Assembly (NCBI GenBank): GCA_019116705.1
Contig: DXBF01000011.1
Location: 1-46,394 of the forward strand
DNA from: Candidatus Gemmiger avistercoris
GTDB lineage: Bacteria > Bacillota > Clostridia > Oscillospirales > Ruminococcaceae
Reading direction: 5' to 3'
Length of the DNA stretch: 46,394 nt
Part shown: positions 1-37,341 of the stretch, piece by piece
Layout of the letters: each line of letters starts with the position of its first letter
Position numbering within the stretch: position 1 is the stretch's first letter
Program-made: the position numbers and the translations under genes
The notes under the pieces: generated by a model
Databases searched by the model: none
What the model saw: the letters and a program-made list of their open reading frames with translations, nothing else
What the model was told of the DNA's origin: nothing

Positions 1-83
1 GGTGCTTCGTCATATTGATCATATCCTTTACAGCTTTCTGTTTCTCGCACCGGAGGATGGAGTGTTACTGCCATGTGGTACAT
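1..83 (-). CDS. Possible partial phage tail-end protein, cut by the window edge
   Basis: On the minus strand a reading frame runs open from ATG codons at 83 or 74 to the left edge. The same frame is also open back to the TAA at 135-137, so this could equally be the continuation of the interrupted gene to its right rather than a separate gene. The AAAAGG before the ATG at 83 is too close to be a good ribosome binding site; it sits about 11 nt before the ATG at 74. The encoded residues (MYHMAVTLHPPVRET...) match no family I recognise. The local sequence is AT-rich like its neighbour. Confidence 0.25.
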   Translation of the reverse strand, partial: MYHMAVTLHPPVRETESCKGYDQYDEA

Positions 84-20182: not shown

Positions 20183-20431
20183 TCACTCCTGTATGTACTC
20201 GGTGAAGCGCCAGCCGTTTGGGCGGGCAAAGCGCTCGATGAACAGCCGGCGGCGGTAGATGTAGTCCCGCTGGAGTTTGCGCACAGCGGCGCTCTTGACC
20301 TCTACCGCCTCGACCGTGCCGTTTTGGTAGGTGATGAAAAAATCCGGGGTGTAGTGCTGCTGCATGTAGCGGAAATTCTGGATGTTGGCCTGGGCGTTCG
20401 TCTCCTGCATAATCTGTTGGACTGTTTTCAT
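20183..20431 (-). CDS. Short DUF1064-like PD-(D/E)xK protein (duplicate copy)
   Basis: 82 aa. From residue 26 on (HYTPDFFITYQNG... to FTEYIQE) it is nearly identical to the C-terminal 57 residues of the larger DUF1064 gene at 23109-23570. The motif PDFF...VEVK is a PD-(D/E)xK nuclease core. The N-terminal 25 residues are unrelated and lack the start of the family domain, so this may be a truncated duplicate or a minimal active form. Its ATG overlaps the stop of the basic peptide gene (ATGA). Confidence 0.65.
   Translation of the reverse strand: MKTVQQIMQETNAQANIQNFRYMQQHYTPDFFITYQNGTVEAVEVKSAAVRKLQRDYIYRRRLFIERFARPNGWRFTEYIQE
20187..20352 (-). repeat. DUF1064 3' duplication, copy A (partner 23113-23278)
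   Basis: About 165 bp of roughly 85 percent nucleotide identity by eye to 23113-23278, in direct orientation, including the shared downstream ribosome binding site. The two copies bracket the helicase-methyltransferase gene, so recombination between them would remove it. Confidence 0.7.
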
Positions 20432-23108: not shown

Positions 23109-23570
23109 TTACTCCTGTATGTACTCTGTGAATTTCCACCCGTTGGGCCGGGCGTAGCGCTCGATGAACAGCCGGCGGCGGTAGATGTAATCCCGCTGCA
23201 GTTTGCGCACGGCGGCGCTTTTGACCTCGACCACCTCCACCACGCCGTTTTGGTAGGTTATGAAAAAATCCGGCGTATAGTGGGCGGCGGGCAGCCGCAG
23301 ACCGCAGTAGGTATCCGCCGGGTAGAGTAGAAACTGCTTGTGCAGTTCTACCTGCGCCACCAACCCGGCCATGATCTTGGGCCACAGTTCGGCGGCGTAG
23401 TAGCGCTGCTCCAGTTCGCTGTCGGCTTCCGGCAGCAGCGGGCCCCGCCGGGCGGCGCTTGTCTGCAAATGCCGTGCCTTTTGGGCAGTATCCCGCCGGG
23501 ACAGTGCTGCCCGTATTTGCTTTTGCGCCGCCGGCCCCAGGCGGGCCAGGTCTTTTTCGGTAAGCCCCAT
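23109..23570 (-). CDS. DUF1064 (PD-(D/E)xK nuclease-like) protein
   Basis: 153 aa. The core HYTPDFFITYQNGVVEVVEV followed by KSAAVRKLQRDYIYRRRLF is the DUF1064 signature: PDFF then ExK as in Holliday-junction-type and restriction-like nucleases. The N-terminus (LARLGPAAQKQIRAALSRR) is helical. Its last codons encode both TEYIQE and the AGGAG ribosome binding site of the helicase. A shorter copy lies on the far side of the helicase gene. Confidence 0.75.
   Translation of the reverse strand: MGLTEKDLARLGPAAQKQIRAALSRRDTAQKARHLQTSAARRGPLLPEADSELEQRYYAAELWPKIMAGLVAQVELHKQFLLYPADTYCGLRLPAAHYTPDFFITYQNGVVEVVEVKSAAVRKLQRDYIYRRRLFIERYARPNGWKFTEYIQE
23113..23278 (-). repeat. DUF1064 3' duplication, copy B (partner 20187-20352)
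   Basis: Second copy of the direct repeat described for 20187-20352; this one is part of the full-length DUF1064 gene and is the likely parent copy. Confidence 0.7.
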
Positions 23571-24249: not shown

Positions 24250-25080
24250 TCATCCTCCTTTTCGTCGTCGCAATTTCAGGCTGATGGACCAGCCCAGAAA
24301 ATCGTTGTAGTTGGCGCTTGCTTCGTTCAGCTCCCAGCCGGGGTACCGTCGGGCCCAGTATTCCGGGCTGTGCAGCAGAGCGCTGTCTGTGGCCAGACGT
24401 TCCACCTGCCGCCGGGTGTAGCGGCCATCCCGGGGCGGGGGCATCACGGGGTTACGAATGCCCCGACTTCGATAATAGCGGTGCTTGCGGTTGGGATGCT
24501 TCATCATGTAGTTGGCCAGGGCTTCCAGACTGCCTTTGTCCAGTTGCAGGCGGTCGGCGTTGGCGCGGCCCAGGCGAACCCCCTTTCGATGCCAGCAAGC
24601 CTCTATCTCATCACGGGCAAGCCCGCAGCGCAGCAGTACATGGAAGTGGGGGACCACTGCTTTCTGGCCGGCATCCGGGTCGGCTTCCTGCCATTCCATT
24701 ACGGCCAGACATTCGGGCTTGTCCAGCCCTGCGGCGCGGCATCGGTCCCGGATGTGCCTCATAAAATTGCGGAAATCCCGCCAGGCTTGTTCCGGTGTTT
24801 CCGGCCGCAGATCGGCGGCATAGGTCAGCGTGGTGTGGGTGTCGGTGCGGTCAAAGTTGCTGACGGCCAGCCTGTGGAACCATTTCCGCGCCATTTTGGC
24901 GTTGTGGTTGGCCTGTGCCTTGGGTGTGCCGCGGAACGGCGGGGCCTGGGCGTGCTGGCGGTCCAGCGCCCGGCTGCGCGGGTCCCGCGTAGGCAGCGGG
25001 TAGATCTCGACTTCCTGGTACTGCGCCGCCCGGGCGGACCTGCCGCACAGGTAGCGCCGTTCGCGCTGGTAAGCTCTCAT
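24250..25080 (-). CDS. HUH rolling-circle-type replication initiator (Rep, ORF2/G2P-like)
   Basis: 276 aa from the ATG at 25080 (GAGGGAGTT upstream). Motif 1 HTTLTY (82-87), HUH motif PHFHVLL with His145 and His147, and a candidate nicking Tyr191 in LEALANYMMKHP are in the right order and spacing for a single-Tyr HUH endonuclease. Such proteins nick an origin and covalently hold the 5' end during rolling-circle replication. In a tailed prophage it could start theta-to-rolling-circle replication or derive from a plasmid. Its leader is opposed by a candidate antisense RNA (25310-25379). Confidence 0.75.
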   Translation of the reverse strand: MRAYQRERRYLCGRSARAAQYQEVEIYPLPTRDPRSRALDRQHAQAPPFRGTPKAQANHNAKMARKWFHRLAVSNFDRTDTHTTLTYAADLRPETPEQAWRDFRNFMRHIRDRCRAAGLDKPECLAVMEWQEADPDAGQKAVVPHFHVLLRCGLARDEIEACWHRKGVRLGRANADRLQLDKGSLEALANYMMKHPNRKHRYYRSRGIRNPVMPPPRDGRYTRRQVERLATDSALLHSPEYWARRYPGWELNEASANYNDFLGWSISLKLRRRKGG

Positions 25081-25251
25081 AACTCCCTCTTTTGGTGAAA
25101 AAAACAATGGGGGCTACGCAGGGGACAACGCCGGGCGGGCCGGGCGGGCGGCAGGGGTGGCAGCGTGGGCGTGGCCCGCCCTCGTTTTCCCCTGTACCCC
25201 TTTCCCCGGCAGGGCACCGTCGTTCTTTTATTACCCTATACAAGCCCATAT

Positions 25252-25269
25252 AGCGGCCGGGCGGCCGCT
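25252..25269. repeat. Palindrome AGCGGCC/GGCCGCT in the rep leader
   Basis: A 7-bp perfect inverted repeat with a 4-nt loop lies 5 bp before the -35 of the antisense RNA promoter. It could be an operator, an element of a nicking origin for the HUH protein, or chance in GC-rich sequence. Farther left, 25131-25150 carries tandem CGGGCGGGC units. Confidence 0.4.
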
Positions 25270-25274
25270 GCGTC

Positions 25275-25303
25275 TTGACAGGCTCCAGCGCGTGGTCTAT
25301 AAT
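25275..25303 (+). promoter_or_regulatory. Consensus promoter of the antisense RNA
   Basis: TTGACA (25275-25280), a 17-bp spacer and TATAAT (25298-25303): a perfect match to the vegetative sigma consensus, on the strand opposite to all surrounding genes. Expected start near 25310. Confidence 0.8.
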
Positions 25304-25309
25304 GATGTT

Positions 25310-25379
25310 GCGAACTTTTTTGCAAGCCACGCGCTTGCCAACGGCTGGCCCCGTAGCGGGGGCCGGCCTTATTTTTTTG
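25310..25379 (+). ncRNA. Candidate antisense small RNA opposite the rep leader
   Basis: About 70 nt from the expected start to the T-run. It contains a hairpin GCAAGC/GCTTGC (22-27 and 33-38 within 25300-25340) and then a strong terminator hairpin. No ORF with a ribosome binding site is present. It is fully complementary to the mRNA leader between the ASCH gene and rep, the arrangement of counter-transcribed RNAs that limit Rep synthesis in rolling-circle plasmids. That role is inference; the promoter-hairpin-terminator unit is seen directly. Confidence 0.65.
25343..25378 (+). terminator. Rho-independent terminator of the antisense RNA
   Basis: GGCTGGCCCC (25343-25352) pairs with GGGGCCGGCC (25359-25368) with one G-U pair, followed by TTATTTTTTT. 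The T-run coincides with the last Lys codons and stop of the ASCH gene on the other strand. Confidence 0.8.
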
Positions 25380-25740
25380 CCAGGGCGGCGTTTACGGCCG
25401 CCGGGTCCAGGGCGCGCCAGCTTTGCGGCGCGCAGCCGACGCCAAACGCGGTAAGCGGCAGCGGCTGCGGGAAGGTCACCGGCTCGGCGCTGGTCAGGCA
25501 GGCGCGGGCGCAGACCTCTTGCAGGTCTATGCCGCGCACCGGGTGCACGGCCCGGCAGCGGACCATGCCCAGCACCATGCCGCAGCCGCCGGCGCTGCGC
25601 GTTTCATACAGCAGCACCCGCAGGTCCGGCATGGCGGTCTGCGCCGCCTTGGGGGCCGTCTTGCGGATTTCCAGCGTTTTCTTGCCGGCCAGCATCAGCG
25701 CGGTGTAAGGCCGGCGCAGGCTCAACAATAGGTAGGTCAT
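25369..25740 (-). CDS. ASCH-domain protein
   Basis: 123 aa, ATG at 25740 with AGAGGA 9 nt upstream. The opening LLLSLRRPYTALMLAGKKTL and EIRKTAPK, then VLLYETRSAGGCGMVLGMV, is the ASCH fold (PUA-like, RNA-binding or modified-base-binding). Phage ASCH proteins may act on nucleosides or on RNA; the target is unknown. The upstream gene overlaps it by 137 nt. It ends exactly at the terminator of the antisense RNA. Confidence 0.75.
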   Translation of the reverse strand: MTYLLLSLRRPYTALMLAGKKTLEIRKTAPKAAQTAMPDLRVLLYETRSAGGCGMVLGMVRCRAVHPVRGIDLQEVCARACLTSAEPVTFPQPLPLTAFGVGCAPQSWRALDPAAVNAALAKK

Positions 25741-27813: not shown

Positions 27814-28011
27814 TTACTCGAAAAAAATTTCCCCTACGCTCCGACCGTAATGCTCCGCGATTCTCCTTTTGGTTTCGTCTCTCGGGATTCTGGCACCGTT
27901 TTCGTACATTGCCAATGCGGAAACACTCACGCCAATCGCTTTCGCAACGGCTTCTCTGCTTTCGTTCCCCCGCAAGGCAACAAGTCTCTTTGCGATTTTT
28001 TCGGAATCCAT
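27814..28011 (-). CDS. Cro-like HTH regulator
   Basis: 65 aa from the ATG at 28011. Helix-turn-helix SREAVAKAIGVSVSALAMYE followed by NGARIPRDETKRRIAEHYGR, an XRE-family fold. It is the first gene of the leftward early operon, divergent from the LexA-like repressor, the standard place for Cro. GGAG lies a rather long 14 nt from this ATG; a GTG at 28026 would overlap the GGAG, so it is less likely. Expected to bind the same operators as the repressor and favour lytic growth. Confidence 0.8.
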   Translation of the reverse strand: MDSEKIAKRLVALRGNESREAVAKAIGVSVSALAMYENGARIPRDETKRRIAEHYGRSVGEIFFE

Positions 28012-28037
28012 TATTGTATATGTCACTCCTTTCTAGT

Positions 28038-28062: not shown

Positions 28063-28091
28063 AGTATACTCCGCCATTTATTTCTTGTCAA
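28063..28091 (-). promoter_or_regulatory. Leftward early promoter (PR-like)
   Basis: Minus-strand TTGACA (28091-28086), 17-bp spacer, TATACT (28068-28063). Drives the cro-like gene and early operon; overlapped by operator 3 and followed by operator 2. Confidence 0.8.
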
Positions 28092-28172: not shown

Positions 28173-28814
28173 TTGGCTGACTTCGCATCCGTCATTAGAC
28201 GATTACGAATTGAGCGAGGTATAACTCAAGAACAGCTTGCTTCTATGCTTAAAATATCTCGCAGCACTATAGGTATGTATGAAACCGGCAGCCGCGAGCC
28301 TGATTTTGAAACGTGCGAAGCCATTGCGGATATATTCAATGTAGATATGGATTATCTTCTTGGCCGTTCCAATGTAGAGCGTAAGGAGCCTGTAGCCCCT
28401 GCTCAATCTGTCCCGCCGGGTTTCTCTCCGATGCCTGATATGGACACTGTCCCGCTCGTCGGCCGCATCGCCTGCGGCGAGCCCATCACCGCCGAGGAAA
28501 ACCTGGAAGGCTATGTCTCCGTCCCTTCTGCCTGGCGCGCCACCTTTACGCTGGAGTGCGAGGGCGACAGCATGGAGCCGACGATCCACGACGGCGACCT
28601 GGTGGCCATCCGCAAGGACGTGCGCATAGAAAATGGCCAGATCGCCGCCGTGCGCATCGGTGACGAAGCCACCTTGAAACATCTGTATCTGCATGACGAC
28701 TATATCGAGCTGCGGCCGGAAAACCCGACCTACGCGTCTATCATCCGCCGCAAAGAAGAAATGAACGATGTTTCAATCGAAGGCAAAGCCGTCGGCCTGT
28801 GCCGCGGTTTGTAA
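28173..28814 (+). CDS. LexA-like prophage repressor (HTH plus S24 peptidase)
   Basis: 213 aa with a TTG start at 28173 after GGAGGTGA. The N-terminal XRE helix-turn-helix (ITQEQLASMLKISRSTIGMY) is followed by a linker and an S24 peptidase domain: cleavage region GRIACGEP (about 98-105), nucleophile Ser133 in GDSMEP, and Lys169 in DEATLKHL. It should hold lysogeny by binding the 17-bp operators and self-cleave when RecA filaments form after DNA damage. The cleavage pair appears to be Ala-Cys or Cys-Gly rather than Ala-Gly. Confidence 0.9.
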   Translation: MADFASVIRRLRIERGITQEQLASMLKISRSTIGMYETGSREPDFETCEAIADIFNVDMDYLLGRSNVERKEPVAPAQSVPPGFSPMPDMDTVPLVGRIACGEPITAEENLEGYVSVPSAWRATFTLECEGDSMEPTIHDGDLVAIRKDVRIENGQIAAVRIGDEATLKHLYLHDDYIELRPENPTYASIIRRKEEMNDVSIEGKAVGLCRGL

Positions 28815-37281: not shown

Positions 37282-37310
37282 ATTATACCTGCTTTGCGGG
37301 GATCTGGCAA
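37282..37310 (-). promoter_or_regulatory. Promoter of rnhA-mnmA
   Basis: Minus-strand TTGCCA (37310-37305), 17-bp spacer, TATAAT (37287-37282). Its -35 lies 2 bp from that of the divergent rnjA promoter. Confidence 0.75.
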
Positions 37311-37312
37311 GT

Positions 37313-37341
37313 TTGACAATCAGGGGGAATCCGTCTATAAT
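37313..37341 (+). promoter_or_regulatory. Promoter of rnjA
   Basis: Perfect TTGACA (37313-37318), 17-bp spacer, perfect TATAAT (37336-37341). A leader of about 185 nt follows. Confidence 0.85.

What the first reader, a model, noticed from the sequence alone, without database searches (positions are those of the whole stretch)
25252..25380. Plasmid-like antisense RNA unit opposite the HUH rep leader
On the plus strand, opposite to every nearby gene, lie a perfect TTGACA-17-TATAAT promoter, a 70-nt region with one hairpin, and a strong terminator with a T-run. The predicted RNA is fully complementary to the mRNA between the ASCH gene and rep. Rolling-circle plasmids limit Rep with such counter-transcribed RNAs; I know of no well-described case in an HUH-bearing siphoprophage. 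A 9-bp inverted match between the promoter spacer and the RNA (25287-25295 and 25327-25335) and a palindrome at 25252-25269 add possible control or nicking sites.
Basis: partly seen in the sequence, partly recalled or inferred. Interest (0 to 1): 0.8.

Follow-up and report, generated by a model that had tools for sequence, protein, structure and literature searches.

The report
Antisense RNA unit at phage origin
Beside the spot where many phages of Gemmiger-like and related bacteria probably nick their DNA to start copying it, a strong promoter points against the phage genes and should make a short RNA; the arrangement, with a paired-arm DNA feature of unknown purpose, recurs in very different phages and may help control when they replicate.

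Summary
At 25275-25303 (+) lies a perfect TTGACA-17-TATAAT; a terminator at 25343-25377 would end a ~68-nt RNA antisense to the early operon between the ASCH gene and an HUH Rep (PF23343, phrog_3584). It is not a one-off. In 130 Rep clusters found by protein only, strong promoters stand upstream of rep on the antisense strand in 45, on the sense strand in 12 (28 vs 2 at higher stringency). In a search by DNA pattern alone, terminator plus inverted repeat occur in 14 of 23 non-redundant Rep-linked matches and 1 of 84 others. Where that motif is found, the unit keeps its distance from it (median 37 nt) but not from rep. I read it as an origin-linked, lambda-OOP-like antisense unit that restrains early transcription at origin and rep (0.5); an RNA-polymerase-primed single-strand origin is the main rival (0.25). 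Many relatives lack it. No experiment was seen.

The parts
25275..25303 (+). sigma-70-type promoter of the antisense RNA (TTGACA-17-TATAAT)
   Evidence: similar promoters upstream of related reps
25310..25377 (+). predicted antisense RNA, about 68 nt; start and end inferred from promoter and terminator
   Evidence: no transcript data
25343..25377 (+). intrinsic terminator (stem 25343-25368 and T-run)
   Evidence: across 30 units stem mismatches on this strand are GT 15, AC 2, other 1
25287..25295 (+). arm 1 of the inverted repeat, in the promoter spacer
25327..25335 (+). arm 2 of the inverted repeat, in the RNA's 5' half
25252..25269 (.). perfect 8-bp palindrome with GG loop: hairpin beside the nick-like motif
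25228..25247 (-). nick-site-like motif; rep-strand reading GGGCTTG^TATAGGGTAATAA, cut predicted between 25241 and 25240
   Evidence: conserved; cut position inferred from the recalled CTTG^ATA site of phiX174/pC194-type initiators, not tested
24250..25080 (-). HUH replication initiator (rep)
   Evidence: PF23343 1.4e-8; phrog_3584 1.1e-51, phrog_3419 1.3e-6; H145, H147 and Y191 invariant in 15 relatives
25369..25740 (-). ASCH-domain gene upstream of rep in the operon
   Evidence: PF04266 1.5e-4, just above the curated cut-off
28063..28091 (-). probable early-operon promoter TTGACA-17-TATACT, from which rep would be read (inferred)
   Evidence: lies between an HTH gene (27814-28026 -) and an S24/HTH repressor gene (28173-28814 +)

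Best explanation
It is an origin-linked antisense RNA unit of a tailed phage that probably replicates by rolling circle. Shown by comparison: promoter, terminator and inverted repeat recur together, opposite to the operon, upstream of the Rep gene and often at a set distance from a nick-like motif. Inferred: in the prophage the promoter is on and makes a ~68-nt RNA against the early operon. RNA polymerases leaving it, and the RNA pairing with the operon mRNA between the upstream gene and rep, restrain leaky early transcription through the origin into rep; after induction the strong early promoter overruns this. This is the logic of phage lambda's pO/OOP facing pR at its origin, and of plasmid counter-transcribed RNAs. 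The inverted repeat is inferred to form a hairpin when the rep-coding strand is single (displaced DNA, or less likely mRNA), with the promoter's start, and mostly its -10, in the loop; its job is unknown.
For: Antisense strong promoter (>=10.5) upstream of rep in 45/130 protein-found clusters (the window is one) vs 12/130 on the sense strand; >=11.5: 28 vs 2; closer Rep group 27/64 vs 1/64; shuffles 53/2960 at >=10.5 (148 clusters). Search by DNA alone: terminator and repeat in 14/23 Rep-linked vs 1/84 unlinked non-redundant matches, p 9e-11. Terminator stems favour G-T over A-C on the antisense strand, 13 vs 3 and 15 vs 2: they act in an antisense RNA. Distance to TACRAG median 37 nt (sd 14) in the 25 of 45 that have it, against 73-413 nt (sd 91) from -35 to rep in the same 25. 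No sense promoter >=8.5 within 600 nt upstream of this rep, so it is probably read from 28063. Lambda precedent: PMC3985674 (abstract and passages).
Against: No transcript data. 62 of 130 clusters have no antisense promoter >=9.5, 20 of them with TACRAGNCC; the distant Rep group is weak (18/66 vs 11/66 sense); 20 of the 45 promoter-bearing clusters have no TACRAG within 90 nt, several of them with a variant motif. With strand-neutral detection only 26 of 58 promoter-selected units have a terminator and 30 of 58 the repeat, against 57 and 42 of 290 random positions and 3 and 2 of 12 sense promoters. In lambda, loss of pO lowers replication, raised OOP RNA has little effect, and OOP does not change O-P mRNA stability (PMC3985674), so a simple brake by the RNA is not what the nearest precedent shows. 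The reading does not explain the repeat or the fixed distance to the nick motif.
Confidence: 0.5

Rival explanations
1. RNA-polymerase-primed single-strand origin (sso): when the rep-coding strand is displaced, the inverted repeat and neighbouring hairpins fold, RNA polymerase starts on it and the RNA primes the complementary strand. The same sequence fires as a promoter in duplex DNA, and the terminator limits that.
For: Strand, direction and place fit: the RNA is complementary to the strand that a nick at CTTG^TATA would displace, just 5' of the nick (inferred). The repeat is conserved in pairing though not in sequence, and its mismatches are unlike an RNA stem on either strand. The displaced strand of the window folds with the repeat and the nick hairpin (z -2.1). 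RNAP-primed sso elements are described for rolling-circle plasmids and discussed for ICEBs1 (PMC4595007, PMC5703833, passages).
Against: Near-consensus duplex promoter hexamers and a terminator constrained in the RNA are not needed for an sso; in most units the -10 lies in the single-stranded loop, not in a stem; a tailed phage can use primase (recalled).
Confidence: 0.25
2. Plasmid-type counter-transcribed RNA acting on the rep leader only (translation block or leader attenuation as in pMV158, pT181, pSK41).
For: Short antisense RNA with strong promoter and terminator upstream of rep; pSK41 RNAI acts about 100 nt upstream of the translation start (PMC5703833 passages).
Against: Distance to rep varies from 73 to 413 nt and reaches 491-495 nt with a gene between in L076 and L051; no intrinsic terminator found in the sense leader; no second partner for the freed arm above noise among 861 window pairs.
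Confidence: 0.12
3. The inverted repeat is a pair of half-sites for a dimeric repressor of the antisense promoter.
For: Symmetric arms flank the -10 and start; a mismatch pattern without wobble bias fits duplex DNA.
Against: Arm spacing runs from 22 to 54 bp in 35 units with no helical phasing (Rayleigh p about 0.44).
Confidence: 0.08
4. Chance promoter and terminator with no function.
For: Many relatives lack them.
Confidence: 0.03

Closest known systems
Lambda OOP RNA and promoter pO
   Same: Short terminated antisense RNA from a promoter facing the early operon, between an upstream gene and the replication initiator, near the origin (PMC3985674 passages; layout partly recalled).
   Different: Lambda's initiator is the iteron-binding O; OOP is antisense to cII and is reported not to change O-P mRNA stability. 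Here the initiator is an HUH Rep, the unit lies at a set distance from a nick-like motif and carries a repeat through the promoter; no Rfam match.
Counter-transcribed RNAs of plasmids (pT181, pMV158, pSK41, pC194/pUB110)
   Same: Antisense RNA opposite the region upstream of rep, strong promoter, short length (PMC5703833 passages).
   Different: Tied to the nick motif rather than to the rep start; sometimes a gene away from rep; in the window, in a phage with a large terminase.
RNAP-dependent single-strand origins (ssoA, ssoU, ICEBs1 sso1)
   Same: Strand, orientation and nearness to the nick site (inferred); structure kept while sequence drifts.
   Different: Near-consensus duplex promoter and a terminator; smaller stem, with the -10 mostly in the loop.

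Membership tests
Plasmid counter-transcribed rep RNA | Promoter on the strand opposite rep, RNA complementary to mRNA upstream of rep | tested here: met
   45/130 vs 12/130
Plasmid counter-transcribed rep RNA | Intrinsic terminator acting in the antisense RNA | tested here: met
   wobble asymmetry; but detected in only 26 of 58 units
Plasmid counter-transcribed rep RNA | Target at, or structurally coupled to, the rep start | tested here: not met
   73-413 nt, gene between in L076 and L051; no long-range partner above noise within 280 nt
Plasmid counter-transcribed rep RNA | RNA lowers Rep level | not testable with these tools
   needs reporters or RNA data
Lambda OOP | Terminated antisense RNA facing the early operon beside initiator gene and origin | tested here: met
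   on sequence; the early promoter at 28063 and the origin are inferred
Lambda OOP | Sequence or Rfam family relationship | tested here: inconclusive
   no Rfam match at gathering score; whether Rfam holds an OOP family was not checked, and no direct comparison with lambda was made
Lambda OOP | RNase III-dependent loss of the upstream gene's mRNA | not testable with these tools
   experiment
RNAP-dependent sso | On the displaced strand near and 5' of the nick, RNA complementary to that strand | tested here: inconclusive
   fits if the inferred nick strand is right
RNAP-dependent sso | Single-strand fold that rebuilds a double-stranded promoter | tested here: inconclusive
   repeat pairs the spacer but mostly leaves the -10 in the loop
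RNAP-dependent sso | Orientation-dependent second-strand synthesis | not testable with these tools
   experiment
HUH rolling-circle initiator (REP_ORF2-G2P) | Family profile, HxH motif, invariant Tyr | tested here: met
   that Y191 is the catalytic Tyr is inferred

The most novel reading that the evidence does not exclude
A two-state origin module: in duplex DNA it fires an antisense RNA that restrains the operon at the origin; in the displaced strand the same promoter folds, through the conserved repeat, into a hairpin that either primes the second strand or silences the promoter while replication runs. The state of the DNA would thus switch the RNA.
Probability: 0.25. Interest if true: 0.87.

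Novelty: new variant of a known kind. Interest (0 to 1): 0.68.

Why it matters
Relatives of this Rep turn up in 84 of 396 genomes of the same family and 92 of 394 of the order, and how a rolling-circle initiator is kept quiet in a prophage is, as far as I know, open. A recurrent antisense unit with conserved pairing, set at a fixed distance from a nick-like motif, gives a defined, testable control point, joins plasmid copy control and lambda's OOP logic in one place, and points to probable nick sites in unstudied phages.

Tried and rejected
Chance: disfavoured. Rfam or other known RNA family: none. The small hairpin in the RNA (25322-25338) as key structure: by eye it is shared only by the near-identical L036 among the six other aligned relatives. 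pT181-like attenuator (freed arm pairing downstream): no partner above noise, no sense terminator. DNA-looping operator: no phasing. Strand of the repeat by wobble: first sets were small or biased (GT 6, AC 3; + strand more stable in 28 units, - strand in 19, p 0.20; repeat GT 11, AC 7, terminator GT 34, AC 4, the latter from a finder that allowed G-T), then redone with strand-neutral detection. The composite scores include the repeat, so they are not used as evidence for it; by that score >=20, 30 of 102 clusters have a unit on the antisense strand and 3 on the sense strand (L058, L101, L111). One search looked at 80 of the pattern loci; at all 150 held. One search did not pick up the nick-site hairpin, so it is blind to short hairpins. 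Plasmid relatives: one record, without the unit. Papers: nine searches; from the listings, and passages of PMC12197685 (a review of phage small RNAs, no 'rolling') and PMC9641780, I found no antisense RNA described in HUH-Rep tailed phages, in this open-access library only.

Full report
What is there. The + strand carries TTGACA-17-TATAAT at 25275-25303 and a terminator at 25343-25377, opposite to the genes I could name between about 20.6 and 28.0 kb. The stretch of the predicted RNA, 25310-25377, folds better than all 200 shuffles. A perfect promoter of this form occurs twice in the window and in none of 100 shuffles. The neighbouring gene is an HUH initiator: PF23343, phrog_3584 and phrog_3419, with H145, H147 and Y191 invariant among 15 diverse relatives. 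A large terminase in the window marks a tailed phage. Of the eight closest named relatives six are from Gemmiger MAGs.

Is it conserved? Rep relatives were collected by protein or profile search (60 further places through; phage records). Of 348 loci then held, 242 Rep ORFs were found, 229 with enough upstream DNA, 148 clusters at 80% identity; 130 of these are from protein searches alone, the window among them. A strong promoter (score >=10.5 of 12.5) lies within about 500 nt upstream on the antisense strand in 45 of 130 and on the sense strand in 12 of 130; at >=11.5 in 28 and 2. In the closer Rep group (HMM bits >=200) it is 27 of 64 against 1 of 64; in the distant group only 18 of 66 against 11 of 66. 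Shuffles reach 10.5 in 53 of 2960.

A test without Rep in the query. 40 matches lie upstream of a Rep and on the opposite strand; no locus with a Rep has its match elsewhere. After removal of near-copies (107 left), terminator-like structures are in 19 of 23 Rep-linked and 6 of 84 other matches, the inverted repeat in 16 of 23 and 13 of 84, both in 14 of 23 and 1 of 84 (Fisher 9e-11). The one exception, L274, starts 146 nt from a contig end.

The nick-like motif. On the rep strand the motif of the close relatives reads GGGCTYGTATRGGGTAATAA or nearly so, beside a hairpin; several distant Reps have TAATACTTTNATCAAG, which is CTTGATNAAAGTATTA on the rep strand. I recall CTTG^ATA as the cut site of phiX174 and pC194-type initiators; no call tested cutting. 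TACRAG lies within 90 nt upstream of -35 in 25 of 45 promoter-bearing clusters (random windows 280 of 2600), at 13-78 nt, median 37 (sd 14). The -35 to rep distance in these 25 is 73-413 nt (sd 91), in a search limited to about 500 nt. In L076 (same as L292) and L051 a homologous gene (33% identity over 135 aa) stands between unit and rep; the L051 unit, 495 nt from rep, has almost the arms and terminator of the L014 unit, 168 nt from rep. The unit therefore goes with the nick motif rather than with rep.

The inverted repeat. In 58 units chosen by promoter alone (44 protein-found, 14 pattern-found), the spacer pairs better with its own downstream segment than with those of other units (-13.8 vs -9.3 kcal/mol, p 2.7e-7; own in the best 5% in 20 of 58); in the 44 alone -13.4 vs -9.0, p 4e-6, with terminator and repeat in 22 each. 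A scan of 861 window pairs over 280 nt found two structures above the noise (strongest positive z 3.0): the repeat (z -5.2; +2..17 with +50..65 from the -35) and the terminator (z -4.9). It missed the short nick-site hairpin. Examples of the repeat reach 12-16 bp with unlike sequences (L076, L014, L028). Arm 1 is not transcribed into the RNA, so the pairing can exist only in the operon mRNA or in single-stranded DNA.

Which strand? An RNA stem keeps G-U. Terminator stems, detected without favouring wobble, show GT 15, AC 2, other 1 on the antisense strand (30 units): they act in the antisense RNA. The repeat (35 of 77 units) shows GT 7, AC 5, other 10; both RNA readings differ from the terminator pattern (sense p 3e-4, antisense p 1.5e-3). 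The counts are small, and the test assumes equal tolerance of mismatches. It leans to a DNA-level hairpin, as for the nick-site hairpin (GT 1, AC 4, other 16).

Against. 62 of 130 clusters lack an antisense promoter >=9.5, 20 of them with TACRAGNCC. Of nine named phage genomes read, six have a unit at composite >=20 (L078, L079, L081, L351, L352, L353), while both Faecalibacterium phages (L080, L084) and Butyrivibrio phage Arawn (L349) do not; nor does the one plasmid (L354). Of five unnamed phage records, L083 has one, L350 and L355 score 18, and L082 and L356 have too little upstream DNA. No transcript has been seen.

How it probably works. The early promoter at 28063 would read leftwards through ASCH and the origin into rep; no good sense promoter was found nearer. 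The antisense promoter faces it. In lambda the same geometry (pO against pR at the origin) is proposed to tune the transcription that reaches the origin; there loss of pO lowers replication, and OOP was at first thought to be a primer (PMC3985674, abstract and passages). I therefore favour a restraint on early transcription at the origin and rep (0.5), and keep an RNA-polymerase-primed single-strand origin (0.25), which explains the repeat and the fixed distance better but the terminator worse. sso facts are from PMC4595007 and PMC5703833 (passages).

Noticed in passing
window 25121-25205; also L007, L013, L080: Between nick motif and rep a second shared element (GGGGACAACGCCGGG ... CCTCGTTTTCCCC on +) could form a long hairpin on the rep strand; seen by eye, also with Reps at about 25-30% identity.
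   Followed up: no
L012, L013; partly L080: Origins without the antisense unit have a longer palindrome containing CAAGCCC...GGGCTTG, perhaps a second origin type (by eye).
   Followed up: no
window 20183-20431 and 23109-23570 (-): Two proteins share a nearly identical C-terminal 57 residues (HYTPDFFITYQNG...FTEYIQE) and flank a helicase-methyltransferase gene, suggesting a partial duplication.
   Followed up: no
window 37313-37341 (+) and 37282-37310 (-): A second perfect promoter lies back to back with a near-perfect one.
   Followed up: no
L055, L056, L057, L065, L307, L309, L311, L325, L329, L333: Rep homologues with one in-frame stop (TAA, TAG or TGA): decayed copies or stop reassignment.
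   Followed up: no
L058, L101, L111: In these the promoter-repeat-terminator composite scores >=20 on the sense strand instead.
   Followed up: no
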